DNA of 64,000 nucleotides from Luscinia megarhynchos (taxonomy: Eukaryota; Chordata; Aves; Passeriformes; Turdidae). Shown here in pieces: positions 1 through 64,000 of this stretch (position 1 is its first letter; each line of letters starts with the position of its first letter). Position numbers and translations under genes: made by a program. Location: NCBI GenBank assembly GCA_034336665.1, contig CM067592.1:37637889-37701888 (forward strand), in the 5' to 3' direction. The notes below the pieces were generated by a model. That model did not search any database. It was not told the DNA's origin and saw nothing but the letters and a program-made list of their open reading frames with translations.

Positions 1-31712
<31,712 letters not shown>

Positions 31713-39114: not shown

Positions 39115-39214
39115 NNNNNNNNNNNNNNNNNNNNNNNNNNNNNNNNNNNNNNNNNNNNNNNNNNNNNNNNNNNNNNNNNNNNNNNNNNNNNNNNNNNNNN
39201 NNNNNNNNNNNNNN
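39115..39214. other. Assembly gap, exactly 100 N
   Basis: A run of 100 N, the usual placeholder for a scaffold join of unknown length. Sequence to the left is clean PTCH1 intron. Sequence to the right is the noisy fold-back arm. The order and orientation of the two contigs rest on scaffolding evidence that is not visible here. Confidence 0.99.
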
Positions 39215-42200
39215 GTAAGTCATGCATGATTTGGGAGAGCAACAGTTGTCATGCGCATTCGACTTTACTCAGTTCATCGTCATAACCGAACAACATTCTG
39301 AAGTTTCGACATCAATCTCATGTCTTCATTGGGATAACTTCTGAAGACTTCGTTGAATATATGAGCTGAAGAGCTCATGTGATAACGGCGTTCATTCTGA
39401 TGACTCAACCCCCAGTCTTCCGTATATCCGAACGTGCCATTAATAGCGTTTTTAAAACCTTCGAGATAGTATTGGCCAGCAAAGTGCAGTTTGTGTATGA
39501 CTTCAGTAGTTAGTGCCCGAATAATTACCTTCGCCCGGTGATCAGATAACATCACCGGTAATAAGAGGAAGTTTATTTAATAGATGCAGGCATTGATGGA
39601 GCCGTAAATATTTTGAGTGAATGATCATTTCAAACTACATCCATTTCGCAGATCGCTGATCATAGTTTGCATAGTTCTTGGTAATAACCACTGGCTTTGC
39701 GACGCATAGAAACAGGTTAACGTTACCTTTCATTGTTTCTCTGACAGCAATATATTTTCTGTTTTAGCTCGACTACTCAAGTCAAAGTATTGCAACATAC
39801 GTTGTTTACCCGTTTATCTGTATCGGTCAACAGCAGTTAATAGGACCCGATGCTGTTCGAATGAAGAAAGTCAAAGTCACCTCCTTTAATGATTTTCCAT
39901 TCCCGCCGTTTAGCTTTAGGCATGCTCCAGTTAACTGGAACCATTAGTAAACACGTAATACCGGGTTTAGAGCCACGTTTAGTAACTCATTAGCCGACAA
40001 GTTGTTATATAGGGTCGACTTCGAAGTTTTAAAATAAATAAATATTAATACGCACTTCCAGCTCAGTTTAACAGGATTCTCGCTCATTGGGGAGTGAAAG
40101 CCGATTCTCCAGAAATTTCCAGAGGCCCAAAAACAGGCACCACTTTCGTGTTTGTTACCGTAATGAAAGTAATCATGAATGAACGCCGAGCCAAAGAGTG
40201 ATGCATGCTTGTTATTATGCCATTATATTAAGCTCGCAGTAAACGTAGCCGTTACGAACAATAGCACTTATCAGTGAGCCTGCTCCGTTTGTAACCTTCG
40301 CTTTAAAAGAATCCTCCAGTCATGGAATGCTCTGAATGCACGCACACAGCAGCAGATGAAAGAAGCCATTTAAGAAACTCACCGGTTTCAATATCATCCC
40401 GATTAAAGTGGTTAAGCCAGCCACGCCGCGTTAAAGCCGTTGTTCTCAAACCAGTGTCGAAAGCGAGACAATGGATCGCACATGCAGCCTCAAAGTTCCT
40501 CCTTCCTCCGGCACAGGTTATACTACTTTCGTGGGGATCGTATGAAAGTGAAATTAACATCGCAACAAGTTGAAAATTACCTTTAAAAATCCAAATTAAA
40601 ACACGTTTTGACCCGATAACCTCGATTACTTTGAATTACGGTTCCACGAACACTGAATTTATCAATACCAAAGCGACAGAAAAATGAAAGCAAAGGAAAG
40701 AGCGCCAATACCGAGAAATTGCGCGCGTAAACCATGAAAGAAAATCAATCCGATATAGTTGTTTCCAGATTTTGGGATCGTATTGGGGAAGTCGAGAGCG
40801 AATTTTGTTCCTTTCAGTAAGAAATTGGTATATGATAGCAGCCGCCAGAATCAAACACTTTACATTCCTTCGTTGTCGAATTCTTCATAAGGTTGAAGTT
40901 TGTGCCAACAAAGCTTCCGTAATACATGGGAATACGAGGATTAAAAGGATGAATTTGAAGGTGATAAAATTATTTTCATTTCGCATCACCTGAAAAAAGA
41001 AAGTTCATTGCGTTGATCTCGAGAAATAGCTTCAATATCTTCTGACCAGTGATACCGAATCTTTTACCCTCGACAAGAAAATAAAGGGTGCTGAAATGAA
41101 ATTGATTCGCTATGATGCATTCAATAATTCAACTTCCTGAGCTCTCGGGACTTCACTTTAAAGTCTCCTCCAACAGTCTCGATGGTCGATAGAACAAACA
41201 TTCCTTCCGGACAGACAATAATTCAAATTCAAAATATCGCTGGGAGTTGAAATTCATGGTTACGCCCACCCGTAACTGCGAGCGAAGCTGAGTCAAGAGC
41301 GACAGCAGCAGATTGCGTTAAACCGATGCGAGTGATGGTTAAAGAAATGCGCTTTCTGCCCGCATCAAACCCAACTAAATCGCCCGGTATAGCCGGGTTG
41401 TATTATACCGATACCCCCTCAAAGAAAACCAACTTTCAAGCATTCACAGCATCCAGCCAATTGCCAATACGCAGTGTCAGTGATTTCAAATAGTATTTTC
41501 GTATGATTTCAACGAAGTCTTCACCGACCAACCCTTTCTGCGTAGAAATTCAGAAACAGTCAATATAAGTCGTTTCGCATCATTTCAGTTCCGCGATCAC
41601 CGATTGCGACATTTAAAAGCAGTTTACCTCCATGCAGCCCCATTTTATACCGCATCAATTATCATGTTTCACAGAGCCAGTTCTGTTGTCACATTCAGCT
41701 ATCGCCAGAGAAAGTGATCGATGAAAATTCGATGTTCTTCTGGTCATAGAATCCTTACAGATTCATCAGACATGTTTAGACAGGTAACTTTTAAAGTTCG
41801 AAAGGTAGTTGGCAATGGGGTTAGTGTCAACAAAGACAGGTAGGCCGTAACGAAAGACTAAGACAGTATGCCCCCGAACCTTCCGCCGTTGATTTCGACC
41901 ACGGAATGATATGAACTGCCAGGTCTTCGAGAATTTAGTCAGTGCCGAACGTAATTTTAGAGGTCACGTGAGCAAAGGAACACTGAGCCGTTCAATATTA
42001 AAGTATACTAAACACATAGAGTTGGTCGTTATTTTCATCGTTACCGAGGATTTTCCTAAAAACAAATTGGCCTCAATAAAGATTCAGTAATGAATGCGGA
42101 GTTTTAACAGAGAGACTCTGAAGAAATATCGCCTATATTGTTTTGCTTTACCCACTTCATACTACCATAACACGAACATGTTGCTCCAGTACCAGTTCAC

Positions 42201-45200
42201 GCAATAAGCCAGCTCAATATTCGTAGTTATTACGACTGCGCAAGAGAATTTCGCTCAATTCCATTATTTGGGATGAGAGTCAGCACAACCGAAGCCGCCG
42301 ACAATACGAGCCCCGCAGAGACAATTGAATCATTTTCGCCAGCAAAGAACTTGGGAGCCAAACCTGTTCTGCCCACACTGAGACTCCGTGGTTACCATAC
42401 ATACACATGCCAGCAGCATCGCTTTATCGTCCACAGTAACATAAAGCAGGGAGATCAGCTTCGCAGGGCAGAATTCAGGTTCACAGGTGACCTACCTCGC
42501 GGGACGTTTCACCAAATTCACAGCTCAGGCCCTGGCGGCCAGGCCGCTGATCAGATTACCACAAAGATGATTTCGCACTTTACTGCATTTTGCAGTTAAG
42601 GAATGAGTGCTAAACTAAAGTTCATCAGAGAAAAACTAATGCCGTCTTCACAGTTATTCTTTCAATCCCGCTTCAAGGACCACGAGCTCTTACTCTGGTT
42701 TCTTCGAGTAGGAGAGGTTCACGATTTTACCAGATTTAGATTAATGTAAGATGAAATATGCTCAAAACCATTTCATTAAAGATCATCGCATTCGTCGTCT
42801 AATCCGGCGTCAGAATGGAGATTGCTTCCAAGTCATCTGCAGAGTATAAAGACAGCATCAGCAACACTACCCCTTCCATAAATAAGTGATTTTCTTCTCA
42901 TTTAAATTTTAAGGTTAATGTTAGGTATAATCGTTGTTCCCGATAGCCAGCCGGAGCACTCGAAAAGTTTGTTGATTTGATTACATTATACGCTTCGCAC
43001 AATTTTTCGTCAGCTTCGATAAAAATTTTCATGCTTTTCGCCAGGTGAAAATCTTCCGTTAGCCACTGATTGGCCATATTCCCCATTTCTTTCATGAGAG
43101 AATACAATAATGGACACGCACTACTTCTTCGGGCGAGCTTTTAGCGCAGAATCTGTCGACACGAATAATTCATAAACCCGCAGTATTCACCATTCATCTA
43201 CCACACGCAGGTAATACAGTACGGATGTAATTTTTGATCGGGAGAATAACCCTTAGCCGAAAACAATGGCCGCTGGTAGCTTAAACAAGGTTAGTTCTTT
43301 AAGCTCTTTCGTTGCTTTCGAACACAATCCATGACAGTTCACAAATCACCGAATTTAGCGGCTAAACAGACGGCTCCTTCCGATGCAGCGTCATTATTCT
43401 TCTCCTCCGATTCTTCGACATTGCACCATTCACCAGCCCAGGCTCTCTGCTTCAAGTCGTCTCGCCTTTCGCTGCTCGGACCGCCAGTTTCCGGTTCGCG
43501 TTAAACAGACCGATTCGGTTGATCGCGAACAGAAACAGTGGTTATGAGTCCAGTTCGGCTTCGTTAACAAATTTCGCACTGTTCACCGGTGTCAGCAGCC
43601 GAGTCGGCACGACATTGCCATCGCTGCCGCCTTTATTGTGACGCCTGATATCTTCGCAGATATCGCAGCCGCGTCAGCTCACATGAACCATTTCACATTT
43701 CACCACGCTCTGAACAGAACTTTTTGCATCATACCCCCTGCTTCAGTTCGCCGGTATCAACGCTGGAGAGAAAGAACCGCGTGACGCCACGCCGGTTCTC
43801 GCCAGCTTCCGTTCTATGAAAGCCATTTTCGCAACCATCTCCAATAGACGCGGGTCTTCATTGCAGACATATCGCAGCCGCCAGTAAATTTTAGAATCGA
43901 TCACATGAAAACAAGATGTTCGAGTCAGTAATAGAAAAGAAAGGCCAACTTGAAACTGGCGTTTTGCAACCCCATCGTAACCTCAACAATTTTGACCTTC
44001 ATTCCCGATTTTAGAACATATAAACCATCATTTAAATCGAATCGTTATTTCAACATTTTGTAATTCACCAAAATTATCCATTGAGCGGCTAACGAATAGT
44101 ATTGAACAACATTTGCATGCATCACACCCGTACCGTACCGTAAGGGCGGAGTGCATACACGTTCATACATAGAATTGTCACCAATTCCCACTCGTCATCT
44201 CGATAATAGACATCCCCGTTAATCATTAGCCAGCCGGAAGAACAGAACAATCGAAGCAGGAAAGTCATTTTCCGAGAGTGTTACATACAGACAAAACCCT
44301 CTTCGAAAGAATATTGTCGCAGGGCCCCCAATTTTAAATGTTTATTGATTATTCAATATGAAATCTCAGTAAGAATTAAAGAAGACGAGATCAAAAGAGC
44401 TGGAAAACTGGCCCGATTCGTGAACTTTCGTTTTCAGACCAGAAAAATGTCGATTAAACATGTTTACGTCGTCGCTTACCGATAAATTCTGAACCCTCAC
44501 CGATTTTAAAAGCCGTCAAAGGTGAACAGAGCATTTACCAAAATAAATGCCGATTGTTCATTTATCATATAAGCTTCAAAATGTCATCTAAAGCGGGAAG
44601 TGGTTCATAGTTTAAAAGCAAGCAATCAATACCAGTGCTGCGACCGGTAAGTTCAATAGTTGGTAGCGTAGTAGCGCTCGCATCTGAAAATACAGTACTT
44701 GTCTAGCTGCGTATAGATTTGTTGTTAAAGAAATAATAATCTGGAGAATATCAGAATCGATTTTAATGCCGACCACGCACGAAAGGCCTTTGATATCGAC
44801 CAGCATGGCCCTTTGCTTCAAAGAGACGTCAGGTCTTTGGTTGCCAAAAGAAGCAACAACTCATTGAGTTTGTTATGATTGCAGCAATCACATCCATTTT
44901 TCCTCTTACGACCGACTGATAGTTGAGCTGCTTGAAAGACAGGAAGCTCCATCATTGGTCATAGTGTTTATTCTCCTTCGCAAAGATAAGATCCTTCGCC
45001 AGTGTCTAGAACGGCCTAAAAATGCCGTCCTTCACCACTTAAAGAACTCCCCTTCCTCCCATAAATTCCATACCAGGTGCTTCTGCCATTTAGCAAAAGC
45101 AGAAAATCACGAAAATCATTCAGTCGGGCCAAATAAAGGAACATTGATCAAAGTTTTTCGGACACCTGGCAGACCCAATCTCTGGTTATTTATCGCCTGT

Positions 45201-48200
45201 TTGCGGGTTGCCCGTTCCAGTCAATCACAGAAACAATTCTCGCCAGTCAACAATCTCGTAAATGCTGGCAGCCAGACAACACAAAGTCAAGCGCCGCCGC
45301 GTTCGAACGCAATCGTTTATCCATTGTTTCTTCGTTTCCCCAGTTACGCCGATTCCTCGCATATACTGCGGTCGTCGCAGTTAATCGAAGAAAACCCAGT
45401 AGAAAGGAACAGAACATGGTATCAATAACCGAAGCGCCCAGTTTTCAGAAATGAAAGAGAATTGGTCAATACTAAATTAACATTCACATATCGGTCGTAA
45501 TAGTTTCGGTTTATTTAGCCGTAAAATGAAGAAACTCAATAAAGCGTTGGCAACGCAAAGAAAGTTCAACCTCAGATTATCAATTGGCTTTCAACATATT
45601 GTGGAATACCAGTCATAATAGCTTGCGTCGTAGGCAGACCGTAACTCTTCAAAGAGACAGCAGCGAAAGTAGAAAGGTCCTCAAGAATATCTCCGTCCTT
45701 CCCAGCGCAACTAAAAGAGAGAAGCGTTCATTTGTTCGCGAGACAGCACAGCCGAAATAAGCCAAAAGCTGAAACGCCATAAACTCAGATTCGACAAGCG
45801 TTATCAAATCACTCACTCAATAATTCACTTAGTACCTAAACGATAAAAGACAGACCAGCGTTCGAAAACGAAAGATTTTCATTCTCAACCGAATATTTTG
45901 TTCATCGTTACTTCAAGCGTCTAAATTCCCTCACGGCAGACGCTAACAGTCGTCTCGATGTCATTGAATCGCCTTTAGTATCAGCACCGTTTCATATCGT
46001 GAAGAAAATGCGAGCAGACCGCATCTTTTCTTCATGACCGACCAACACAGGTTCCGGTCAACAGCCATAAGCCGCCGCCTAATTACAGCAGTTACCACGA
46101 ATTTATTGAATTAGCTTGCCGGTGTATTTCCTGGCTTCTTTCACGTACGCCCGTTCCAAAGACATTTACACAGCAAGAAAGCCAACAATACCCCTGCGAT
46201 ATAGTTTCAGGATCACCCGTTTAGCTTCATCGAAAAGAAGAAACAGTTATGAGGCAGGTGCCGAAATCTGGTAACAAGCCCAGAGCAATAAGAAATCTCT
46301 CGTAAACGGTCAATGTTCAATAAAGCAAATCATACAAGAATTAAACCACCATTCGTTACATACGTCTCTGCGGAATTCTGGAACATTTTCGTCTTATCGA
46401 CGAAGCCGAAATAGAGCGGATTAGTTTTCCTCCCGGTGAAGTAATCATTATAAAGGCGATTACTTTAAGAAAAGCACGTAAGTCAACAAAACAAAGAAAT
46501 GGCCCTCGACTTCAATTTATCAATCACTTTTGTGCCTGTTGACGACAAGCAGTAGAGCGGGAATAGTATCGGGTTTTCATTACAATTCGATTATCGTTAT
46601 AATTCAGCACCATACCGTAATATGTTCACTCGATGGGTCAGACTTCATTCTGACTATCAATGTTATTCGTTAGCGCTCTGAAAGACCCACGCCCGCTTTC
46701 CTTCCGATCAATAATTACAGGAGCCGTTCCAGGCCGTCAAATCTTCTCGATGGCCGATAGTATTTAGCCATGGTACCGTTACCGTAAAAAAGTATTCCCG
46801 AGAAAGGAAATTTATTTTCTGCAGTCAAATTCATAATCCGACAGCAGCGGCTTCGTTATTTCCTCTCAATAAGCAATCATCAGTCATGCCAAGAAGTGTC
46901 ATGGCTTCAGTGCCTTTGACGATTGTTAGGCAGTCGCAGACGTTGACAAAGTTTCGGGTGCTACAGCAATAAGCAATGTCGCACTGGCGTAGTTGCCTGG
47001 CCTCAGCTCACAGTGTTTCATATAGATGTAGCAGGTATCATACAAAGGCGTCCTCGCAAAGCAAACTTCAAATCAAAGCCAAAATGTTGAAAGAAGAAGT
47101 TCGAATTTTAAAACGAAAGCCGCGTTACTTTATTGCTTTGAAAACAAAGTAATGAGCTCTAATCAGCCTCATAATACTAAAGACATTGATGATGGAAAAG
47201 CCTGTTGAATGACAGCCAATCACGTTAATCGCGCAATTCGGTGACAGTTACCACAAAGCCGGAATAAGCTTCCCACAATTACGCAGGCCGCACAAGCTCG
47301 ACAACGCCACTTCTGGCACCAAACCAGCCGCGTCAAAAGTGCCAGCCTTCCATCAGCAGAAGCGAACATCTAACCCAGTACGCAAACACCAACCAGGTGT
47401 CTTCGCATTTAAAGCGGGATTCTCATTATTTGCTCGTTTGTTGCAGAGGCTCGGCGCCGTGCGAGTAGTGATCACCAAAATCAAAGCAACAGCCAGTGCA
47501 TTGCAGTTATAGCAGTTCATAATACCTTGTGAAGTTACCACTGCCGGGATTAATATCGCGTTTTCCAGCCAGCCGTCCAGAAATAATGGTTTCTTTCAAA
47601 TAAAAGACAGCAGCATATGTTAAAAATTCAGTCAGGTACAAACATAGATTTATAAATATGAAAGTTGTGACGCTGCATTTTGTCCGGTTCAGCCACAGAT
47701 GCACAGAACGTTCACTGAACATCGAACATCACTTCGGTCACAAAGATTCTTTATTGTTTGGTGTTAATAGAGAATATTGATTGTTGTTAGTGAGTGTTAA
47801 GACTTTGATTTTGTTATTTTATAAATAATATTAATAAAAGAAAGAATAAAACCGATAACAAATGCAAAAATTTGACAGACGCTATTTATTCTGAAAGAAG
47901 ATACCGCTTTGCGCATCTCTCGCTTTCGCAATAATAGCGTTCTTTTTCCACGTTACAATATAATTAACATATACCTGGCAATATTCGGTGCAGAAGAAGC
48001 GTTAATCGTCGTTTCTCAATGAACATGAAATAGCCGACAAACAAAGCAAAGAAATGGTCAAGGAACACAAGGCCGAGGCACATGTGTCACGGAGAGAAAA
48101 CTTATAGTTAACCTACATGACAAAAATTTTCAGCAATTCGTCGAATAATACCTGGGGATTTTGAATGAAAGAACGCGCGACAAGAGCCAGATTGTCCTCG

Positions 48201-50026
48201 ACACTTGCCGTGCTGGAATACCTGGCGTTAAAAATAATGAGATTTGACATCGAAACATGGCCGAACTGCCAGTTTGTTAAAAACGGAAGATGTGAAGTCA
48301 GATAAAGGGGCTTTGCTGTTCAGCTTCAAAGCCGATTGCGCTATGCAAAACTCCCCTTCACTGGGAGCGAAGCCAGCAAAGGGAATATCAGAAACTCAGA
48401 CATTCGGTACACTTGCGTACAGATAAGATGCATAAAACCTCTCTTCCCCTTTTCCTCCAGTTCCAAAACGCCTACCAGCAATAACCGTTTTCATTGAAAG
48501 ATTTAACCTTCTCTGCCTGCGTCAGTCACCTTTCCTCCTCATTTCAACAAACTCAGATACCAATACGTTATTGCTTCAACACAACCTGAAATTATCTTCG
48601 CCACGTTCAGACTTCCAGTTGTTCATCTCTGTTCTCAATTTATTGAAAATCAATGTCCAATAAAACAATTACGAGCATAGCCAGTCAATACGCATCCCTC
48701 AATTCATCCAACACAACTTCCGTTTTGAACAGCGAGTCGTCATGGTTGTGCAGGAAGGATTTACACTGAAGTCCGGAAACATCGGAAAACTTCCAGAAAG
48801 ACCAGAGAAGAGCACAGCCAGCCCCGAAGAATTCCCTTCGATGCGGCAGGTAGAAGTTAAAACAGTTAGAATGGCAAGATTTGCCTTGCCATAATATATT
48901 TACCTCTTTAAAGACGAAATTTGTAAGACAAGGCAGGCTCAAAACTCAAAAGATACAAGAAGAAATTTATTAATAGCTACGTACCAGAATAAGATTCCAG
49001 ACAGCTCATTCATATTTACCGGTCATCAGAAGAATACCAACCACCAGTCAATCGCTTCAGTTCACCGTTCCTTTTAGTTGGTATTGGGGCCTACATTCGG
49101 GAATATATTGCAGATTGCACTTCCTCCCCATTTCGTTTTTCCGCGCCATGGGTTGTTGCATCTTCATCTTCTACCGGCAGGCCGTAATTGTACCATCTCT
49201 TCCTCTGTCAACGTTCAGCACTTCAACGAGAGCTTCGTTAGTATTCAATACTTAGTGAAGCGTCACGCCAGCCCACAAAAGGCCACCATCAGCCGCATCT
49301 CGTTTTCCCACTGCGGCATCTTCAGTCTCCACCGGCCTTCGTAGTTCTTATGTTAATTTCGAGACGATACCCATCCGAAAGAGTTACAGTTGTACTGTAT
49401 CCAGATCATGAAGAAACACACGGGCAGCGCCGAAGCCCTCTTCGTCATTTGAGGCGAGCCCAGGCGGTTCGTAGATGGCAGCCGGGTCACGCAAATAAAG
49501 CGGTTGGTGCCGGGAAGTCACCGTGGAAGTCAGGGGATCGAAATGCCAGTCGTACGGGCCGGCCTCGAGCTCTGAGTTGGGCCAGTTACCGTATTACCAA
49601 CGCGAAAGAATGAAAGTTGCTGACCATTCGGTGATAGAGCATTGTTTTCGAGCTGTTCATCAACGGTTTTCGGTGCCGTTAAAGTCATTGTGTGAAGTTC
49701 AGAACTCCAGTTCGGAAAGCCGCCCGAGGCGAATCCGTTCTCTCACGTGAAATCAATGGCGAGGCTTATCTGTTCAAGTGATTCTTCACGTCACTCTCCG
49801 GATGAGCGCCCCACAGAGAATCAGTCGCTGCAGTAGAAACAGTTGTTTTGTGGATTGGTACCACCTTCTACCTGGGACCCTCATATCACGACAGTTTTCA
49901 CCAGACATTGATAAATGACAATCATTCAGAGATAAAGCTTCTGGAGTTGCATCATTACAATTTTGGTTCTGATGGAAGGCTTGTTGTTTAGAAAATGTAA
50001 GATCAACAAAAGGTCATATATGTGTG
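39215..50026. repeat. Noisy left arm of a fold-back palindrome: low-quality reverse complement of about 50,027 to beyond 64,000
   Basis: The stretch looks foreign (many CG dinucleotides, no repeats, only short open frames), but it aligns in reverse complement to the sequence right of 50,027. Exact block pairs: 49,396-49,417 with 50,888-50,909 (22 bp); 48,951-48,977 with 51,546-51,572 (27 bp); 48,926-48,946 with 51,578-51,598 (21 bp); 47,640-47,661 with 53,219-53,240 (22 bp); 39,657-39,675 with 63,960-63,978 (19 bp). Block 42,388-42,413 pairs with 60,241-60,267 with one missing base. Between blocks there are dense substitutions and deletions. Distance from the axis is 0.74-0.75 of the partner distance at 47.6, 42.4 and 39.7 kb. 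Bases 39,215 to about 39,640 must correspond to sequence beyond the window. I read it as unpolished sequence from one chimeric fold-back read. None of its open frames should be called genes. Confidence 0.95.
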
Positions 50027-50056
50027 CCACTGTACATGACCTTTTGTTGATCTTAC
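49997..50056. repeat. Hairpin at the axis of the fold-back palindrome
   Basis: Bases 49,997-50,017 and 50,036-50,056 are perfect reverse complements (21 bp), separated by an 18-nt loop at 50,018-50,035 that is itself imperfectly symmetric. The symmetry point is about 50,026. Beyond the stem the symmetry continues, but with errors on the left side only. It marks the turn-round point of the read rather than a biological terminator or attachment site. Confidence 0.93.
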
Positions 50057-50409
50057 ACATTTTCCTAAACATAGCGCAAAACATCTCCATGGGACCAAAG
50101 ATTTCATGTGGTGCAGAAAAGTTCCAGAAGCAGCACCGTATCTCTGAATGGTTGTCAGAAATTTATCTGTGTCTAAGAAACAGAATCACACCTTGTACCC
50201 ACTGAAACTGTCGTGATTAATGAGAGGGTTCATGTTTAGGTAGAGGTGTTGGAGTGGGTACCAGTCTACAAACAACTTGTTTCTACTGCAGCATTTCCCA
50301 GTTCTATATATCTCTGTGGGAGAGAGGGTGACAGCTCATCCAGGAGAGTCTTGGAATGTTGTGAAGAATCCCCTTGGAACATGAGAACTAGTGGCTGTGG
50401 TAAGCCATG

Positions 50410-51650
50410 TGTGTTGGTTTCACGTGGTAAGGGGGAAGGGGTGGATTCGCCTCAGGGACGGCTCCAGGGGGCTGGGGAGTGGGAGGGACTCTCCCGTCTC
50501 TGGGAGCTTCCCCTGTGAGCTGCTGGCACCAATCAGAGAGCTCATTTGGTGATGGACAGCTCGGGAAACCAATGAAAAGTTATTTCGCTTTCACAAATCA
50601 CAGTGGATCGGGTTGGCTGCTCGGTCTTTCGGTTTCCGGCTCCCGGGGGTGAGGTGGCTCTGGCCGGGGCACCGGCCCTGGCCCGGCTCCGGGCTCGGCG
50701 GGGGGAGCCCGGCCCGGCACGGCCTGGCCGCGTGGTCCTGGCCCCTCCGACCGCATGGCCCCGGGTGACCCCAGCACCGGCCACATGGCCCCGGCACTGG
50801 CCGCGTGGCCCCAGCCCTGCCGGCTCTGCTGGGCTCGCCTGGGCTCGCCTCTCCCCGTGGCAGAAAAGGCCTCCAGCTGCCCATGTGGTTTCTTCATGAT
50901 CTGGATACAATTTTAACTTCTTAATGCCTGGATAAGATTCTCGATCTCCTGAGCTCCCATGAATGAGAAGAAATTAAGCATAGAGACTACAGAGGCCAGT
51001 GGAATGAAGATAAAGTTCCTGGTGGGAAGAGAATGAAAAGATGCAACTGATAAGTAGCTGAAAACCTTTTTGTGGGCTAAGGGGATTGTGACTTCACTAA
51101 AATTCCTTTAAACTGTGAAATATACTTAGGGAGGTTTGGATGCTTTGTTTGCCTCGGGGAACTTGAGCTCTCTCTGTTCTGGGACTGGAATATGAACAGA
51201 GACATTTGATAGAGGAAGAGATGAAGACAATTTTGTTTTTCGGCAGCCTGCCTTTAAAAGTGGTACACCAAGTGTGTAACATAACCCATAGCACAGCTCT
51301 GGAAGGACTGTGAAAGAATGGGAGGAGAGTCATAATCTGCAATATATTCCCAGGCGGATGTAGATTGTGAAGGTGAAGACACCCCCCCAAGCCATAACTA
51401 AAAAAGGAACTTTTCTCTCTTGAGTGAACTGAAATGATTATTTGGGTGGATAACTGACTGAAGTGTTCTCTGTATTGTTGGTAAGAAATATGGAATGAAG
51501 GGAGAGGGAACAATCTAGGAATCTTATTCTGAATTTTTTTTTTGTGCTATTAATAAATTTCTTCTTGTATCTTTTTAAGTTTTGAGCCTGCCTTGTCTCT
51601 ATTCCTATATTCCTAAATTTCATCTTTAAAGGAAAATTAAATATATTAAA
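50410..51650 (+). mobile_element. LTR-like element, probably a songbird endogenous-retrovirus solo LTR
   Basis: It begins with tgtgttggtttcacgtgg, an opening I associate with passerine LTRs. CCAAT-type boxes follow near 50,530 and 50,573, then a very GC-rich block at about 50,630-50,880. An AATAAA sits at about 51,551 in ctattaataaatttc, and the stretch ttttgagcctgccttgtct follows, like an R/U5 end. No coding frame for viral proteins is visible. The right edge is uncertain (51.6-51.65 kb) and I could not confirm a target-site duplication. Its mirror image at about 48.9-49.75 kb in the noisy arm is the same copy read twice, not a second insertion. Confidence 0.5.
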
Positions 51651-51950
51651 ATTGGCAAAACCCAAGTCACACCCTGACACCGTGGAACTCTGCTACTGTT
51701 TTGCTGACAAGTCGTTCCTACCTGCCTGCCACATGAAGGAGTATTATACAAGGGCTAAACAACCTGCTCTTCTCCCTGTAGTGCTTCCTAGGACACCAGT
51801 GGTCACCAGGACTGAGGTGATTTCCTATGCCATCCCTTCCTACTAACCATATTTGACTCCACTCTTAAAACAGAGTGAGAGTTGTGTTGGGATGTTGGGG
51901 GTCACATGTGGCAAAAATATGCTCATGGGTGGTTTGGTAAGTTGTGGTGA

Positions 51951-51967
51951 TTTTTTTTTTTTTTTTT
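51951..51967. repeat. Poly-T run
   Basis: Seventeen consecutive T followed by a T-rich tail, in the clean right arm. Low complexity. Confidence 0.85.
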
Positions 51968-53503
51968 CTTTTAATAAATTGAAACAAGTGGAATAGCTGG
52001 AAATCTAGGCAAAGTCATTGGTACGCAAGTATTTCTTCAGCTCTGAAGGAGAAAAATGAATTTCAAGGTTACATGCATGTTAGAAGCAATGCCCATGAAT
52101 TGAATTATCTGGAGTTTATTTAGAAATGAGAGGAAAGGTATTTGAGCCTCTGGAATAGAGAGGAGTTAAGAGGTTTATCTTCCAATATTGTTTAAAAACA
52201 GGAATTTATTGCCTAGGGAGTGCACAGAGGTTTTTGGAAGGAGCTGGAGGAGAAAAGGGAAGAAAGTTTTTATGCATCTTATATACACACTTAAGTGTGC
52301 CCTAACCTGCCAAATAATCTGGGATTTCTAATGTCTTCCCTTTTTATGACTTTCAGCTCCCAAGTGCATAATTTGAAGGGAGTTTTTAATAACTGAAGGG
52401 CATCTGCACCCAAAAGCTGTCCTTTTTAATCCAGCTTACAAGCTGAACTAATAAAAATTGCTATCTCTGACTTCACATCTTTCCATTTTAACAAACTAGC
52501 AGTTCAGCTACAAGGAAGTCCATGTTTCTGAATGTCAAAATGCTCATTATTTTTCTTTATAGGTATTTAGTTGCTTGTGTCTAGGTGTCAGGACAGAAAT
52601 CTGTCTTGTCCTTTGCGATATGTTCAAATCCCAAGGTGTGAGAATTGTTAGATTGCTTTTGAAATTTTGTCATAGCTAGGTTAGCTATAGAGTTTTTCTC
52701 TCCTGATAAACGCCAGCCATGTGCCTCAGTATCATGATAAAGCTGTGTTTTGTATTATTTCTTTGCCTTTTTGTTTTGTCCAGTACTTTCATGTTCCATT
52801 GGGGGAAAAGCAGCCAGTTAACCTTCTCTACTGTATTTAATGAGGCTGGGTAAAAATATTGCCAAGACACTCTTATGGTGGAGTATATTTCCTCTTAAAT
52901 AGCAATGGAAAAAATTTGCCTATTATTTTGCAAAGCAGGGGAGGAATGCACAAAGCAATTATCATTCTCCAAGAATCATGCGTCACAATAGATTTTTTGC
53001 ATTTATTTTATCAGTTTTATTCTCTTTATTAATGATATTTACTATAAAGTAAATGCGTAAATAAAGTCTTAGCACTCACTATGCTATTACACTAAGTAAA
53101 TATTTTCTCAATGCCTGAAACTTAATAAAAGAATCTGTGTTAGTGATGTTCAGTGGTGTGTTTTGAGAATTCTGTACTCATCTGTAACAAATTGGACAAA
53201 AAGTCTAGCATTCACAACTCATATTTATAAATCTATGTTTAATGTTTACTTGTGTTTTTGTATATTTTCTTTCTTGCTATTAGTGCCACTGTGCTTTATT
53301 TTGAAAAAAACCATTATTTTTTTCTCTGGACAGCTGGCTGGAACTTTGCAAATGGCTAAATCCAGCTTGTACTGGTAGTAGTGGTAGCAGCTCTTCAGGT
53401 TCACTGATGACCTATGACTTATTTTCTCTTCTAATGCACAATATTGCTGATTTTGGGAAATGCTTGATTTCCTTCACTTCACACAACGCCAGGAGCCCCT
53501 CTG

Positions 53504-53526
53504 CAAACAAACAAACAAATAAACAA
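53504..53526. repeat. (AAAC)n / (AAAT) microsatellite
   Basis: Five to six tetranucleotide units in the clean arm. The same locus in the noisy arm, at 47,418-47,449, keeps the flanks but is garbled and shorter, a clear example of repeat collapse by read error. Confidence 0.9.
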
Positions 53527-56500
53527 GAATCCACTTTAAAATTCTGGGCCTCACATAGGAAAGTTGAGTGTTTGCATGCAGTTAGATATTCATGCTTCTA
53601 AAATAGCTGAGTGGAGGTAACTTTTTGTACAACAATTTGGGTGCAAATTGAGGCGACATGATATTTGCATGGAAGAGCTTAGAAAAATGCAGCCTGCAAT
53701 AATTGTGGGCTTATTTCCAGCTGTGTTGTCTTCTCTGAGAATTGCTTTTGAATAACATGGTGCTGTGGAGTTATTCAACAAAATTTTTCCATCAGTGTGT
53801 CTTAGTATTATGAGCTAATTAAAGAGCTCATTGCTTGTTTTCAAAACTAATAAAAATTCTTACCTGCTCATGGATCCTGCAAGAGTCACAATTCAGAATT
53901 TCTTCTTTTTCTTATATTTTGTTTGGGGTTTGGAGTTTGGGTTTTTTTGCAGAGTTTTGGGGATTTTTGCAAACCAGGTGCCTGTATGATACCTATATAT
54001 CCTATATAGAACCTGTGAGGGCTGAATGACACATGGTAAAACTTTAGGCAACTACATAGTGCATTGTGCTGTACTGTACTTTGAAAACTGTCTTTGTCTG
54101 CTGACCTATGTAAAATCATTAAAACTTCTAAACCATATTTTCTTGGCATATTACACCAAAAGAATGCTTAACAACGTGAATTGCTTTAGATAATTAAAGA
54201 GAAATGTAAATGCTTTTTGTCATACTGCTGTGGATTATAGATTTGGCTACAGAAAATAAATTTCTTTCTCAGAATTACTTTTTTTTTTTTTTAATTCTGC
54301 TGTTAATTGGGAAGTACCATGGCCTAAAATACTATCAACCATCAGAGAAAGGTTGATAAAATTAGACAACCTGGAGAAACAGCTCCTGTAGTGTGGTGTC
54401 AAGAGGAAAGCTTAGGCTTTCATTAAGGTAAATGCTCTCAGCACAGAGCCTTGTAGGTGAGAATAACTGTGATAGTAGGAATAGGGAAATCTGACCCATC
54501 AGGTATAATGAAACCTGTACAGTTCTATGGGTGCTAAGTGTCTTTTGGGTCGAGATTATAACAGCTTGATATCAAAGTCTGTGCAGTTGCTGTAGCTTGA
54601 AGAAACCAAACCTCTCCCTATTCTTCCCACTCCTACTACCCCTTACTTTGTCATTAGGAAATGCCCCTGGAAAGCAAACAAAAGAATGGTGTCTCATTAG
54701 TGGGAGATGTCAGGGAGCCACATTTCTTTGGCTTTGTTGACACATTGCTTTCTTAAAAGTAATCACCTTCAGCTATAATGGATTACTTCACCAGGAGGAA
54801 AACTAATCCTCCTCTTCAGCTGTCAATCAGGGCCAAAGAATGTTCCAAGAATTCCACAAGATGACACTCTTAGCAAAATAAGAGTAGTTTGGGAAATTCT
54901 TAGCCTTGGTTGCCTTGTGAGGCAGTAATGATTTACAGGGGTTTCTTATTGCTCTGGAACTGTTACCAAGATTTCAGCACCTGCCTCATAACAGCAACCC
55001 TGTTTTTTTCTTCTTTCATTAAGGAATACGCTGTTGATCCACAAACGGAGCAAAGCTGTCATGGAGGTTATATATATATCACTAGGGAGTAATTGTTAAC
55101 TCTTGCTATGTAATAAATGTCTTTTTGGAACAGGCCCTTCTTACGTGAAAAAAAGTAGGAAATACACCAAGCAAAAAAATGCATTCAAATCTAGAATTCG
55201 TGGTAGCTGCCATATTAGGCAGCAGCCCACTTGGCCGGCTGAATCACCCTGACATTTGTATGAGACCAAAAGGAAGCCTAAACTTGTGTTTCCTAATGTT
55301 AGTCAGTCATGAAGAAAAAAAATGCAGATATATAATACTCCTTATTTTTCTTCCACAATACTTAAGAAACAGAAGTACTACAATACTAAAGCCGAATTCA
55401 GTGTGGCATGTAAGTCTTCAGAGGACATTTGGTAGATCTATACCGTGAGGGAGGAATTTAAGACACTGAGAGCTCTTGGGGTAACCGATGGGCAAATAGT
55501 GGTTAAGTGAAGAATCTTTCATTTTCAGACACTGGTCTGAAAAAACATCTTTGTGTTTAGGTACTAAATTGAGGTGTAGAACAGGTATTATCTATAGGGG
55601 TTTGATAACACTTGAAAATGAATTCAGATGAAAGGATCTGAGTTTATGGCGTTTCAGCTTTTTTGGCTTATTTCAGCTGTGCACAATCTCACTGGAGACC
55701 AAATGAACCTTCCTCTCTTTTAGTTTGCACATTTTCAGGATGAATTAAGATGCTGTAGAGCACAGCTTGACAAAGAGTTGGAATATTCTTGGGGACAGCT
55801 TTCCTACTTTACCTCTAATGAAGCTTTTTCCTTATATCCTCTTTAAGAGAGTTACAGTCCTGCCTACATTTTTAAGCTATTACAATATAACTGAGTACAT
55901 TACAACTATGTTGAAGCCAATTGATAATCTGAAGGTTGAAAGAGACTCTTTTGCAGTTTACTTAACCTTGTGGGATTTCTTCATTTTGCCACAGCATAAA
56001 TAAATAAAAATAATAATACATTGATATGTGAATGTTAATTTGAAATATTGACAATTCTCTTCAGTTTGTAAAACTAGGCTGAAAAACTGGTGTGTGCCAT
56101 GGTCCACAGGAGTTTTCTGTTGCTTCTGATTAGGCAAACAGTTCTCTATAAACAGGTTTTCTTATGTTCTTTCCCCATTTCCAATTACAGTCTCTGCAGG
56201 AATCAGAACATACAGCACTAGGGGGGGAAAAAAAGAGAACAAGAAGATGAAGAAAACAATGGAATAAAGCAATTGCAGTCTTTCAGACTGCCAGCAATGC
56301 TTGCTTTGAGCTTGTATTTGTCCTGAACTCCAGCTCTGCTTACAATTTTGGGTGTGACACAGCTGAAGGAGGAGGGGGAGATATCAATTGTTTTCTGTGG
56401 TGAACAAGGCAATAGATTTCAAGGGCAAAACCCACCAAAAATAGAGGTTTCCTAGGCGTCATATTAGGATTAGGTCCTAAATTTAGGTGTCAAAAAGAGC

Positions 56501-59500
56501 TGATCAATGTTATATTTGGCCGGCACTGGTTGAGTGGTTTTCAGTGATTACTTCTGCTTTTTGCTTCATGAAACTAAAATGCTTTGTAATTTTAAATAAC
56601 ACCTAGTAAACATAGAGTACTATAGGAGGAAGGGTTCTTTAGGATTAATTGAGGACTCATTAAACATTTTTTAAATTGTTCTAAGACTTTTCTTGAAGGA
56701 TCTTATCTTTGAAAAGGGAAAAGTATTTTTTCTGTGTATTAAGGAGCTCCTGTGTAGGAATACTGGCTCTTCAACTATAGTCAGTCATAAGGAAAAATGG
56801 ATGTGATGTACATCATAACAAATAATGGAGTTGTTTACTCTTTAGCAACCAAGACCTGTTGTCTTAGTAAAAATTCTATGCTGAAGTCCATTTTATAAAG
56901 GCCTTTCATTGCATGGTCAAGCATTAAATGTTCTATTAAATGTGCTCTCAAGATTGCTCATAGCTTGTGTTCTGTTATGTAGAGACCAGATTGGTATTTC
57001 TTTAGCCTGGTACTTAAATCTATACCTACACAGCTAGACCAAATTCTGTATTTTCAAAGATCTGGGCTTTCTGCAGTTCCTTCTGCCTGATCATTGAATT
57101 TAATGCTGTGACCACCCAGTGCAGCTTTGTGTGGTTAGCACTTTTAAAACTATGGGAAACCACTTCCCGCTAAGATTGTTAAACGTAAAGGGAAGCATTT
57201 TAAAAACATATAATCATGGAATAATCCAAGCATTTAACTTATTTTTAAGTAAAAAATACTCTGTTCACCTTTGACAGCTTTTTTAAAAAATCAATTGAGT
57301 TAGAATTTATCCAGTTAAACTGACAGCATGCAGGCTATGTTTAATCTGAAACATTTTTTCTGAGTCTAAAACAAATAGAAAGTTCTGAATGTTGAAGTTT
57401 TTAGCTCTTTGAGTCTCATCTTTCTTAATTCTTACTAGAGATTTCCTCTTAAATAATCAAATAAGCATTTAAATTAAATTTACGACAATATTCTTTCAAA
57501 GAGGAGGGTTTTGTGTATATAACACTCTCAGAAGCATGTGGGCCAGACAGTGGCACCACAAAAAGCCCCTGATTGTTCTGGTCTTCCAGCTAAGCTGTAA
57601 TTAATAAGGGGATGTCTATTGGTTGCAAGACTTCAGATGGCAAATTTAGGGTGAAACTCCAGACTAGCCTCTATTGATGGTGGCTGTAATTCAGACAATT
57701 CTATGTAATTCTATGTAAGACATTATTTATCACACTCCACCCCCTTACAGTTACAGTACAGGTTGTGATGCATACAAAATGTTGTTCAAATACTATTCAT
57801 TGTGCCATAGTACGTTAATTTTAATTGGAATTACAAAATGTTGGGAAATATTTTGCTTTGTTATATGAATTATGAACCTACATTTAAATGATAGTTTATA
57901 TATTTCTAAAATCAGGAATGAAGGTCAAAAATTTACATTTAATTTGGTTTTTCTTGAGGTTACAGTAGAGTTTTAAAACATAGTTTCAAAGTTGTATTTC
58001 TTTTTTCATGCAACTCGAACATCTTATTTTCTTATATGATATCCGAATTCTAAAATTTAACACATACTGAGTACGCTGCAATATGTCTACAATAAGAAGA
58101 TTGCATCCTATTAGAATGAGATTTTAGAAAATATTCTTCCTCTGAGAGCAGAGCTAAGCAGAGGTAATAAAATATGTATCCACACCTTTGAAATTGGTTT
58201 CTTCCTCTCAAAAAGCATTGGCAGAAAAGTCAATTCACCAGCAGACTGAAGTAAAGTTATGGCTACAAAAAGTTCTGTTCAAAAGGAAACATTGAACAAG
58301 AAATGTTAGGAAAATAAGCGTTCATGTGACTGAGCCTTGCAGCTCTTGCAGTCCTATAGTACGAAGGTCAGTCCAAGGGCACCATCTAATCACAGAGCAT
58401 GGCTTAAAGCAAGGTAAGCAAGCATGTGTTCTTGAAATAACTGCTCAGCTTTTGAACCAGGTAAGACCTGAGAACTTATTACAGCAAGCCAGACAAAGAA
58501 AAGTTTCTGAGGACTCATAACCAGTTTTTCTTCCTGTTGCGATTACCCCTCAACCAGATCAGTGATCTGTTTCACTGTGTAGCTGTACAGGCACCAGAGC
58601 TGGCACAACAAATGGTCCAGAGCAAGGACAAAGGCCTAGGATGGCCCACCAACAGCAGCCCAGAGCAGAAGCCTGCGTGGTGATGAATGGGTACAGGTGG
58701 GAATCTGAATATCCAGGAGGCTGATATTAAGTCAGAGGAGAAAGAAATGTAGCCTTCATCATCTATCTTAAGGAAAGGAGCCAATCCTGTTGCCCTTAAA
58801 ATGGTGTTGCTGGTTTTCAGTGTAGACCTGATCATGTGGATTGTGTCCAGAAATAGCAAAAGAACTTAAAAGAATTCTGCTGTTTTAAATACCAAGACTT
58901 TATAAACCAACCATTGTTTTCAGCTAAGGACTCATTCTCCCGTCAAAAATTATTAAGAACATCAGTACCCCCTAATATTACCTACCTGCAGTGTAGTTCA
59001 GAATGGAATAATTAATTTTCTGGGATTTATGAATTATTCATTAATATTAGATTCTGCACTTCTAAAATCACCCAGAAATTAGTGCATTATTCCATTATTG
59101 TATTCTCTCGTCTCCTTTTATTTTTATCGTGTGCTAAGAGAAATAGGGAATACTTGTGAAAATCAAGTGTTTCACTCTAACACAAGAAGGTAGCAGACCA
59201 CCATGAGGAGAATTTTCCTGTAGAAAAAGCATAGAAAATCACAATTTTTATCAAAGCTGGCAGAAGAGAAAAATTATGCAAGCAGCATAATGTAGTAAAT
59301 CAACAAGAAACTTTTCAGGTGCTCCCGAGCAATTTATCAGAACAACCAGTTACATACCTATTTTTATTAACCTTTTAAAAATTTAAATGAGAGAAAATCT
59401 ACTTATTTGCCATCTATGGAAGGAGTAGTGTGCCTGTGCAAAGGCTGTCTTGCCTTCCCCATACTTTTTCAGAGCCTCACTCTGCAGATGAGAAGCAAAA

Positions 59501-62500
59501 CATCTCCATTCTGACTGCACCAGTTAGATGACAAATGCAGTGTCTTTGAAAATGGAAATAAACAAGCTACTCTATTCAATTGAGTACTAATGAATCTTGG
59601 TTTCCCAGACATATTTCACTCTTGCAAAACACATTGAAATCTAAATCTGTTTAAAATCAGTGAACAGCTAAACTATATAATTCTGTTCTTCCCATTTCCT
59701 CAGAAAACCAAATTAAAATCATGTAGTTATCTTCCTTAAGAGACAGGATTGAAGAATGCTTTGTAGAGACAGCATTAGTTTTGTACAGTTTGGTCTCTGA
59801 CAAGGCGAACTATTAGATCCATTTTTTGCACAAAATTTTTTCTTTCTTGCACTCATTTCCCCTTAACTGCAAAAGCTCTGTGTTACCAAACAAGATGCCT
59901 GAGAATGGTTGTATGTCCTTTGTGGTTAATCTGCACAGTCAAAAGTACAGCTACTCACTGAGACCACCTTCTCCAGGACCTGAGCTGTAGACTACTGAGA
60001 TGTGTGCAGAGCCTTGGTCAATAGCAGCCACAGGAACAAAGGAGTCACACCTGCTGAAGACCTGGAGTATTTCACTGTGTGGCTGCTTCTGCCAATGGGG
60101 ATTTCACAGGTGTTTGGAGCTGCTGTGTGCCAGCCCCGAAGGCCTCTGGATGTTTGTTCTTGGTCTCCTGCTTTTATGTGGGCTTACTATCCCAAATACC
60201 ACTGTGGACACAGGTAGCAAGCCACAGGTGGCAAGTAGGACTGGCATGTGTATGGTATGGTAACCACAGGTCTCAGTGTGGTTTAATGGGCAGAACTGGG
60301 TTTTACACAACTTGCACAGCTCCCAAGTTCAGTTCTTGCCGCAGAGGATGGTTGATTCAGTTTATGGGTGGCTCTCTGTTCACAAACTGCCTTATTGCAG
60401 AGGGCTCTGTGTGTCTTCCTGACAGCTGAGGTTGTGCTGATGACTTCTCATCCAAATAATGAAGTGGGCAAAGGTAGCCCCATCTTGCCTGAGTCATAGC
60501 CTATTCTTTTTTCCCAAGATCGTCTCTACACAGTGTGAGCTGAAAAAATCTAATTAGGGGAGGGAGGGTTTTGTGGGCAGACTTTAGGAGCAACATGATT
60601 CATTGTTATGAAGTAAATATGGAAGATAAGGTTAAAAAATAAACAAAACAGAAAGCTATAAGAGGCGATATTTAGATTTCTTCCAAGTCTCTGTGTTAAA
60701 ACTCACACATTCATTACTGAAAATCTTTATTGGGATTAATTTGTTTTTTAGGAAAATCCTCAGTAATAAATCTTTCAAGTATAGCTCTTTGACCAGATTG
60801 CTCTATGGTGATTTAGTATACTTTTATGTGAAAACAGCCTCAGTGTTCCTTGCCTCCATGTACTTGATTTCCAGAGCTGATATCCCGGACCTCTAAAATT
60901 ACCGTTCCAGTACTGGCTGAAAGTGAACACTGAGCTAAATTCTCAAGATCTAGACCTGGCAGTTCATATCATTCCATGTGGATGTACAAGAATCCAGATT
61001 TGAATGCTTGGCAGGAAAGTTCAAGGAGCACTGCAGAATACGGCTATAAACAATGTTTCATCCTTCCTTCTCTGTCTCGTCTTTTGCAATCGTTGCAGCC
61101 TGCCAGCTTCACTACCTGAGGCTGTCTAAACCTTTGTTGACCTTCTCACTAACTTTACATTGCCAACTACTATTTTCTTTCTGCCTACTGTCTCAAAGTG
61201 AGGCTTTTAAAAGTTACCTGCTCCTAAAACTTCTCTGATGAGAGATCTGTAAGGATTCTGTCGAAGAACATCAGATTTTCATCAATCCACTCGTTTCTCT
61301 GGCACATTAATACACTGAATGTGACCAAGAAAACTGGGAGCCTGATGCCACCAGGCTTTCTGTGGGGCTTGCTGGATTCAAACATGATCATTGATAAGTC
61401 AGCATGGAGTGTGCAGTATAAAATAGAATACTGCATGGAAGACTAAAGCAAAGATTTTTTTAAATGTCCTGTCAGTGAAAGTCTTCGGGACTAATTGTTT
61501 AAAATGATGCAGAGAACGGACAGCAAAAAGCTTATAATTATTTCTTTCTGAATTTCTACACAGAAGAGGTTAGTCAGTGAGACTTGTTGAAATCATACAC
61601 ATCAGCTATGTGGAAAATACTAATATTTGAAAATCACTTGACACACGTATTAGCAATTAGCTACAAGATGCAAATATGAAATACTTGAAAAGTTGAAGTT
61701 TTCTTGGGGGTATGGTATAATACAACCCAGCTTTACATACCAGGCATTTAGTTAGGTTTTGATGCAGGCAGAAGCACTATTTCTTTTGCTTTTCCCTTCC
61801 CTCCACCACACTGCCATCAATGGGTGGAGGGATTTGTGCCTGTGCAGTGGTGCAGGGTGCTGTCACTCTTGGCTACTCAAGCTTCATACTGGTTACAGAA
61901 ATTAGGCATAGCACTTAGCAAACTCCTGTTTGCCTGCAGGTCCCTATTTTCTGGCTTTCCCAGCAGGTGTACTACCTGTGCCAGGATTTACAGATGTGAT
62001 TGAGTGCTGTCTATTTTCACACTCAGGATAATTTGTTCTCTATCGGCCTACATGGGATATTGGAAGGGCTTTAAAAGTAAGTCCAAAGGAAACAGAGAGG
62101 CTCAAGGAGTTAGATTGTGAATGCATCACTACTTGAATAATTTCATTTCAGCACCCTTTCATAACACTTATTTTCTTGTCAGGGAATTAAAAAGAATTCA
62201 GTCAACATGTAGAACACTAATGCACTAGTCAAGAAGTGAATGTGGAAAAGAGAATGCAGGAGTTGATTGTGAAAATATTTTTCTCCGAGATCAACTTAAT
62301 GAACTTTCTTTTTTTTCAGAGTGATGCAAAAAATAAAAATAATTTTTAAAATCACCTTCAAAATTCATCTACTTTTAATAATCTCTAATATTCCCATGTA
62401 TTACAGGCTTGGTAGCACAAACTTCAACCTTATGAGGGTGATTTGTTAACCTTGAAAGGAATTATAAAAGTGTTTGATTCTTTAGCCACCATCTAAACCA

Positions 62501-63540
62501 ACTTTTAAGGGTTCTTTAGCCTTTCTAAATATATCACTCTCTGAATTTCTTACTAGAAGGAATAAGAGAATTCACAATATAAAAACCCCCAAACATTAAC
62601 TGATCCCAAAAAAATCACAAAACAAATACCTATGGATTGATTTTCTTTTCCACATGGTTTACACTTGCCTGTTTCTCAGTGGCCAAGTCATGTAAGCATC
62701 TTCCACTTGCTCATTTTTCTGTCCTTTTGGTGGTGTCAGTTCAAGTGTTCATGGAACCATGAGATAAAGTAATCAGGTTAAAAACATCCAGGTTAAAAAC
62801 AATGTTTTGTTTTCGTTTTTTTTAAGGGCAATTTTCAACTTGACACAGTCATTGTCTCATTTCACTCATACAGTCCCACAAAGAGTAGTACCAGCATAAC
62901 CTGTGCCAGATGGGGCCAGAGGGAGGAGGAGAAACCCCTCCAGATGCCAAGGGAAACACATGTGCAGTCCATTGGCTCCTCTGCTCCCTGCCCACGGGAG
63001 CCACTGGGACAGGGCAAAGCAACTGCCTGGCATGAAGCAAACTTGGCTCCTTTTGAAATCCCAGGATGGTGTAAGAGCCAGTGGGGTTTCTTTAAATGAA
63101 ACACACCCACAGGCACTGCTCATCTGCTGCTGTGTGCATTGCATTCCAGAGCATTCACCTCTCCAAGCCTGCAAGTGACTGGAGGAGGATTCTTTAAAGC
63201 AGAAGGTCAACACAGAGGCCCATATCCAGAACCAAATGCTTTCCTGAATACTAAGTGCTATACATGGCAGTTGTTCATGGCAGCTACATTTTTATGCATT
63301 TGCAGGCTTAATATAGTAAGCATAATGTAAACATGCATCACTCTTTTGGCTCAGCGTTCATTCATGATTACTCTCATTGCAATTGTAGAGCTGCAAAGTG
63401 GTGCCTGGTTTTCTCTTACAGACACCTCTAGAGTAATTTCCTTAGGAAGTCAGCTCACTCTCCCCCATGGAAGGGCTTTCAGAGAACGGGGGAAATCCTT
63501 TCAATGCCAGCCACTGAAGGCTGGGCTGGAGTGCATGTGC

Positions 63541-63560
63541 TTATTTATTTATTTATTTTA
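63541..63560. repeat. (TTTA)n microsatellite
   Basis: About five TTTA units near the right edge of the window. Simple repeat only. Confidence 0.85.
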
Positions 63561-64000
63561 AACTCCAAAGTATTTCTCTGTAACAACTTGTCAGCTAATG
63601 AGTTCTGTTTAAACGTGGCTCCTAAACAGTGTACACGGTATTGTTTTACTAATAGTTTCCAATTAATAGGCACTATAAAAATATAAACAGCAGGAATGGA
63701 AAAATCATTAAAAGAGTGGCTTTTGGCTTCTTTCATTCAGGCAAAATAAATGGGTTATATTGCTGCTGTTATTACTGATACAAGACATAAAGCAGATTAA
63801 AACAACATATGTTTTTAATACTAAATGCTGACTTGAGATGTGCATGGATGCAGGCTCAAAACAGAAAAAATATATTGCTGTCAAATTGTGAAAAGGGCTG
63901 CTTATTTAACAGCCCTGTTTCTGTACATCACAAAAAACAGTGGACAGCATTACCCAAGGACTATGCAAACTATGATCAACGATCTGCAGGAGAGGTGCAA

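What the first reader, a model, noticed from the sequence alone, without database searches (positions are those of the whole stretch)
39215..64000. A 25-kb fold-back palindrome: the foreign-looking 10.8 kb is a noisy mirror of the 14 kb to its right
The stretch 39.2-50.0 kb passes at first glance for bacterial or phage DNA. Read in reverse complement it tracks the sequence right of 50,027 along the whole length, from the hairpin at the axis to the last bases of the window. Exact anchors of 19-27 bp (see the feature entry) occur in strictly mirrored order. Substitutions and deletions fill the spaces between them on the left side only. The simplest explanation is a long read that runs through template and then complement, kept at a contig end next to the N gap and never polished because accurate reads map to the clean arm.
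Basis: partly seen in the sequence, partly recalled or inferred. Interest (0 to 1): 0.88.

Follow-up and report, generated by a model that had tools for sequence, protein, structure and literature searches.

The report
Nanopore fold-back read in chromosome assembly
A 10.8-kb stretch beside a gap in this animal chromosome assembly is an error-filled mirror copy of the 14.6 kb next to it, and is most likely one badly read nanopore fold-back molecule rather than real DNA; it lies on the side where exon 2 of the gene PTCH1, which a search did not find in the assembly, would be expected.

Summary
Window 39,215-50,026 (10,812 bp) is an error-filled reverse complement of 50,027-64,626 (14,600 bp; 626 bp lie past the window end). 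45 of 45 exact anchors (15-30 bp) are collinear; global score 6420 against at most 478 in 10 shuffles. The mirror ends on the last base before the 100-N gap.

The left arm lost 31% of bases in steps of at most 29 bp; homopolymers of 6 or more fell from 39 to 2; CpG observed/expected rose from 0.19 to 1.14; substitutions are strand-asymmetric, A>G 293 against T>C 93. That fits base-calling noise, not vertebrate divergence. A shorter, worse second arm is the published nanopore signature of self-complementary molecules (PMC7229812).

Consequence: PTCH1 exon 3 onward lies left of the gap, but PTCH1 exon 2 was not found in the assembly, only a paralogue's. Real sequence is probably missing where the artefact sits.

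Known artefact class, low biological interest. Raw reads, which would settle it, were not available.

The parts
39115..39214 (.). 100-N scaffold gap; the noisy arm begins at the next base
39215..50026 (-). Noisy arm: error-filled reverse complement of 50,027-64,626; likely the second half of one fold-back read
49996..50057 (.). Axis: perfect 22-bp stem (49,996-50,017 / 50,036-50,057) with an 18-nt loop (50,018-50,035)
50027..64000 (+). Clean arm (template); the mirrored part runs on to 64,626, 626 bp past the window
1551..31734 (-). PTCH1 exons, residues 125 to 1102 of a recalled PTCH1 sequence; exon 3 is the one nearest the gap (31,734-31,522). Exon 2 was not found.
   Evidence: exon 2:

Best explanation
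The stretch 39,215-50,026 is an error-filled reverse-complement copy of 50,027-64,626 and is most likely the second half of one nanopore read of a fold-back molecule that an assembler kept as a contig end. Inferred steps: during library preparation a DNA end probably folded back at the axis near 50,026 and was joined to, or copied into, its own complement. The read would then run along the minus strand from right to left, through the true sequence (the clean arm, later polished by other reads), round the hairpin, and through the complement. Re-annealing of the two arms behind the pore would pull the second half through too fast, so that bases were skipped or miscalled. No second molecule would have covered that overhang, and accurate reads would map to the clean arm, so it was not corrected; the scaffolder then set it beside a 100-N gap. 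The true DNA at this place, probably including PTCH1 exon 2 and perhaps exon 1, would be unassembled. Shown: mirror geometry, error spectrum, position at the gap, and no PTCH1 exon 2 in the searches made. Inferred: platform, single molecule, reading direction, cause of the fold, failure of polishing.
For: Mirror geometry: 45 of 45 anchors collinear, score 6420 against at most 478 in 10 shuffles, ending on the last base before the gap, turn within an 18-nt loop. Error spectrum over the full arm: 63.0% matched, 6.2% substituted, 30.8% deleted, 4.9% inserted; in the window part deletions are at most 29 bp and insertions at most 8 bp, homopolymers of 6 or more fall from 39 to 2, CpG o/e from 0.19 to 1.14, A>G 293 against T>C 93 (p 9e-28), G>A 119 against C>T 41 (p 1e-8). 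CA read as CG: 141 of 628 aligned A after C, complement 32 of 829. Only 4 of 105 template CpG became TpG or CpA. 7 of 7 left-arm windows and 0 of 108 other windows of the region show CpG o/e of at least 0.8 with at most 0.7 long homopolymers per kb. Loss is even along the arm, 24.6-39.0% deleted in each of the 13 full kilobases. Fold-backs are about 0.55-0.6% of nanopore genomic reads and were virtually absent from HiFi (PMC12870357); second arms of self-complementary strands are read too fast, with missed bases, and come out shorter (PMC7229812).
Against: No reads, depth or quality values were available. PMC12870357 saw no notable change of signal at the breakpoint in eight artefactual or control cDNA reads and thinks that such molecules likely pass the pore without issue, so a bad second arm is not a rule for fold-backs. 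Of six complementary substitution pairs, three show no significant asymmetry (A>T/T>A p 0.30, C>A/G>T p 0.59, C>G/G>C p 0.13). I found no paper in print describing the CA-to-CG bias. No second fold-back was found among 10 contig starts of 10 kb.
Confidence: 0.93

Rival explanations
1. A real inverted duplication (near-perfect palindrome) lies here in the animal sequenced, and only its letters are wrong because nanopores read second arms badly.
For: PMC7229812 shows that true inverted duplications give the same noisy, shortened second arm; the geometry alone cannot tell them apart.
Against: Reads entering a real palindrome from the left would read the left arm first and cleanly, so it could be corrected; here the whole arm has raw-read quality and ends at a contig end. 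This is an inference without reads.
Confidence: 0.04
2. An old inverted duplication whose left copy diverged by mutation.
For: Identity over alignment columns of 60% would fit an old copy in amount.
Against: CpG rises instead of falling, 4 of 105 template CpG went to TpG or CpA, substitutions are strand-asymmetric, homopolymers vanish and no indel exceeds 29 bp; the other arm keeps the composition of its surroundings.
Confidence: 0.01
3. A PacBio read with a missed adapter.
For: Missed adapters also give template-then-complement reads (recalled).
Against: The 18-nt loop is shorter than the 45-base adapter; best ungapped match of the recalled adapter within 49,000-51,000 is 22 of 45, no chance control run. 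Both arms would be equally noisy in such a read, and PacBio errors lean to insertions (recalled), whereas deletions exceed insertions 4502 to 714.
Confidence: 0.01
4. Foreign (bacterial, phage or plasmid) DNA inserted or joined by contamination.
For: High CpG and few homopolymers give it a bacterial look.
Against: It tracks the right arm along its whole length. 41,000-48,000 has no match in phage or plasmid records. The 10 longest of 29 left-arm frames of at least 75 aa have no PHROG match up to E 0.1 and only two Pfam matches, E 0.0078 and 0.031, both under Pfam's cut-off.
Confidence: 0.01

Closest known systems
Fold-back artefacts in long reads: Heinz, Meyerson and Li 2026, PMC12870357 (parts 1-3 of 5 read, which hold the main text)
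   Same: Second segment is the same place on the opposite strand, turning within 200 bp, with little or nothing between the segments; known from nanopore genomic libraries.
   Different: Here only an assembled trace is seen, not the read; the second arm is far noisier, whereas that paper saw no notable signal change at breakpoints in the eight cDNA reads examined.
Nanopore failure on inverted duplicates: Spealman, Burrell and Gresham 2020, PMC7229812 (parts 1-3 of 4 read, which hold the main text)
   Same: First arm of ordinary quality, second arm full of miscalled and missed bases and consistently shorter.
   Different: Their cases were real inverted duplications in yeast; here a library artefact is the likelier source. 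Current and quality could not be seen.
Palindromic nanopore reads that yield palindromic contigs: plastome study, PMC7092973 (passages only)
   Same: Unsplit palindromic reads carried their error into assembled contigs.
   Different: Those reads came from long-range PCR and plastomes; the library here is unknown and the genome is a 1.09-Gb animal one.

Membership tests
Fold-back long-read artefact (PMC12870357) | Second segment maps to the same location on the opposite strand, within 200 bp of the breakpoint | tested here: met
   Mirror from an 18-nt loop outward
[quoted passage not shown]
   The read is not held; called arms are 10.8 and at least 14.6 kb
Fold-back long-read artefact (PMC12870357) | Other reads cross the place without a break | not testable with these tools
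   No reads available
Nanopore second-arm failure on self-complementary strands (PMC7229812) | Second arm shorter than the first, with missed and wrong bases starting at the junction | tested here: met
   10,812 against 14,600 bp; 30.8% deleted, 6.2% substituted; high error from the first kilobase on
Nanopore second-arm failure on self-complementary strands (PMC7229812) | Raised current, fewer samples per base and low quality scores in the second arm | not testable with these tools
   No signal or quality data
Nanopore second-arm failure on self-complementary strands (PMC7229812) | First arm of ordinary quality in the same read | tested here: inconclusive
   The right arm has normal composition, but it may be a consensus of many reads
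Real, diverged inverted duplication | Divergence of a natural kind: CpG decay and strand symmetry | tested here: not met
   4 of 105 template CpG to TpG/CpA; CpG o/e up to 1.14; A>G against T>C p 9e-28
PacBio missed-adapter read | Adapter, or room for it, at the turn | tested here: not met
   18-nt loop; best match of the recalled adapter 22 of 45, ungapped and without a chance control

The most novel reading that the evidence does not exclude
The animal sequenced truly carries a 14.6-kb near-perfect palindrome on the 5' side of PTCH1 that displaces or replaces its exon 2, and the nanopore failed on the second arm.
Probability: 0.04. Interest if true: 0.5.

Novelty: not a real feature. Interest (0 to 1): 0.15.

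Why it matters
It is not a biological feature but a clear trace of a known sequencing artefact inside a chromosome-scale scaffold. Its composition (CpG depletion and long homopolymers gone) can pass for inserted bacterial DNA, and its geometry for a palindrome. It lies on the 5' side of PTCH1, whose exon 2 was not found in the assembly, so annotation of that gene from this assembly would probably be truncated. The signature (CpG o/e near 1, almost no long homopolymers, reverse-complement self-match up to a gap) might help to screen other assemblies, with the caveat that simple arrays and contigs of extreme G+C also pass parts of it.

Tried and rejected
Foreign DNA: phage and plasmid searches with 41,000-48,000 gave no match. 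The 10 longest of 29 left-arm open frames of at least 75 aa gave nothing in PHROGs up to E 0.1 and two Pfam matches, E 0.0078 and 0.031, both under Pfam's cut-off.

A second example: of 10 small-contig starts of 10 kb, 8 had no minus-strand self-match; C1000 had one of 89 bp at 76%; C500 had three that come from a degenerate CGAT array. C500 also passes the CpG/homopolymer signature in 5 of 6 windows for that reason. Of 20 further contig starts of 1.5 kb, two (L036, L037) pass both thresholds but have G+C of 0.24 and 0.67, where the signature says little. No base rate follows from so small a sample.

Another copy of the clean arm near the axis, which could show the true continuation: the search of window 50,027-51,300 in the own genome did not complete. 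The end left of the gap, 37,800-39,114, has no other copy found; 39,215-40,500 matches only itself and its mirror.

Weak matches against a missing PTCH1 5' end: residues 3-80 at 172,831-173,070 of the extended stretch (27% identity, E 0.047, in G+C-rich low-complexity sequence 109 kb to the right) and residues 77-108 at 48,192-48,103 in the noisy arm (41% over 32 aa, E 4.4, 0.13). Both were taken as chance. (PDB search with L028:1001-1195) used wrong coordinates and says nothing; one search gives the match at 1,501-1,695, minus strand. In one search, 12 of 13 PDB sequences are patched homologues and one is an unrelated carboxypeptidase (E 6.3e-5).

Six literature searches were answered. Those for fold-back reads at contig ends, palindromic chimeras and an A-to-G bias gave only PMC7092973 as useful; PMC12667832 holds none of four terms sought.
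Full report
What was checked. The window is 64 kb of a 74.4-Mb scaffold (C36) in a 1.09-Gb assembly of 1,235 sequences. It has one run of N, 39,115-39,214. Self-comparison on the minus strand shows that 39,215-50,026 mirrors 50,027 onward. 45 exact runs of at least 15 bp, the longest 30 bp, are all collinear; 170 shared 15-mers compare with a mean of 0.48 in 50 shuffles and none in the direct orientation. A global alignment scores 6420 against 362-478 for 10 shuffles. The mirror goes on past the window: the last 413 bases of the left arm align to the next 626 bases of the scaffold (score 264 against 35-66 in 17 controls), and the alignment ends on the last base before the N gap. The arms are therefore 10,812 and 14,600 bp. 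At the axis stands a 22-bp perfect stem with an 18-nt loop.

What kind of differences. Over the full arm, 63.0% of template bases are matched, 6.2% substituted and 30.8% deleted, with 4.9% insertions. In the window part, deletions are 1-29 bp and insertions 1-8 bp; runs of 6 or more equal bases fall from 39 to 2, and CpG observed/expected goes from 0.19 to 1.14. The 39 kb left of the gap have 0.17, so the right arm is the ordinary one. Substitutions are not strand-symmetric: A>G 293 and T>C 93 (p 9e-28), G>A 119 and C>T 41 (p 1e-8), T>G 82 and A>C 47 (p 0.006); the other three complementary pairs show no significant difference. The largest single source is CA read as CG: 141 of 628 aligned A after C, against 32 of 829 for the complementary change; these 141 are nearly half of the 299 A>G of that count. 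Natural methyl-CpG decay is nearly absent: 4 of 105 template CpG became TpG or CpA. Loss is spread along the arm, 24.6-39.0% in each of the 13 full kilobases. With CpG o/e of at least 0.8 and at most 0.7 long homopolymers per kb, 7 of 7 left-arm windows and 0 of 108 other windows of the region stand out. These are the marks of a base-caller on one strand of one molecule rather than of mutation in a genome. Alignment pairs some bases by chance, so true substitution rates are probably higher than counted; simulated noise aligned the same way (four settings) gave similar figures.

How it most likely arose. Template-then-complement reads make up about 0.55-0.6% of nanopore genomic reads and were virtually absent from HiFi data (PMC12870357). 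In nanopores the second arm of a self-complementary strand is read too fast, with miscalled and missed bases, and comes out shorter than the first (PMC7229812). Here the supposed second arm has 74% of the length of the first. Against a simple union of the two: PMC12870357 saw no notable signal change at breakpoints in eight cDNA reads, so not every fold-back need be read badly. The reading direction that fits is from right to left on the minus strand, clean arm first; the contig then ends where the read ends. That one read was kept as a contig end, and that polishing failed because accurate reads map to the clean arm, is inference. The loop is too short for a PacBio adapter. Palindromic nanopore reads have been reported to produce palindromic contigs in plastome assemblies (PMC7092973, passages).

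Rivals. A real palindrome with a badly read arm is the only rival with some weight (0.04): it explains the errors but not why the left arm was never read cleanly from the left. An old diverged duplication is contradicted by the error spectrum. Foreign DNA is contradicted by the mirror and by searches without matches. The bacterial look follows from the errors themselves, which remove CpG depletion and long homopolymers.

Verdict. The feature is a sequencing and assembly artefact of a known kind. Added here: the true extent of the mirror, the strand-specific error test that separates base-calling from evolution, and the PTCH1 exon 2 that the searches did not find. No reads were available, so the final proof remains to be made.

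Noticed in passing
window 1551-31734 (- strand); C36 in general: PTCH1 on this scaffold lacks a findable exon 2 (and exon 1 nearby), while a paralogue with exons 2-5 is present on C12:18,187,417-18,197,706 and just downstream (L028, L029). The scaffold may be a bird Z chromosome (recalled, untested).
   Followed up: partly
L021 (C500) 6-7500, followed by 2,500 N: A 7.5-kb degenerate CGAT tetranucleotide array (76% matches, 14% indels) at the start of a 65-kb unplaced contig, CpG o/e over 4; real satellite or another assembly artefact is open.
   Followed up: partly
window 50545-50973: A G+C-rich spot (64% G+C, CpG o/e 0.69) in the clean arm about 0.5 kb from the axis, in a region otherwise depleted of CpG; might be an element on the 5' side of PTCH1.
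   Followed up: no
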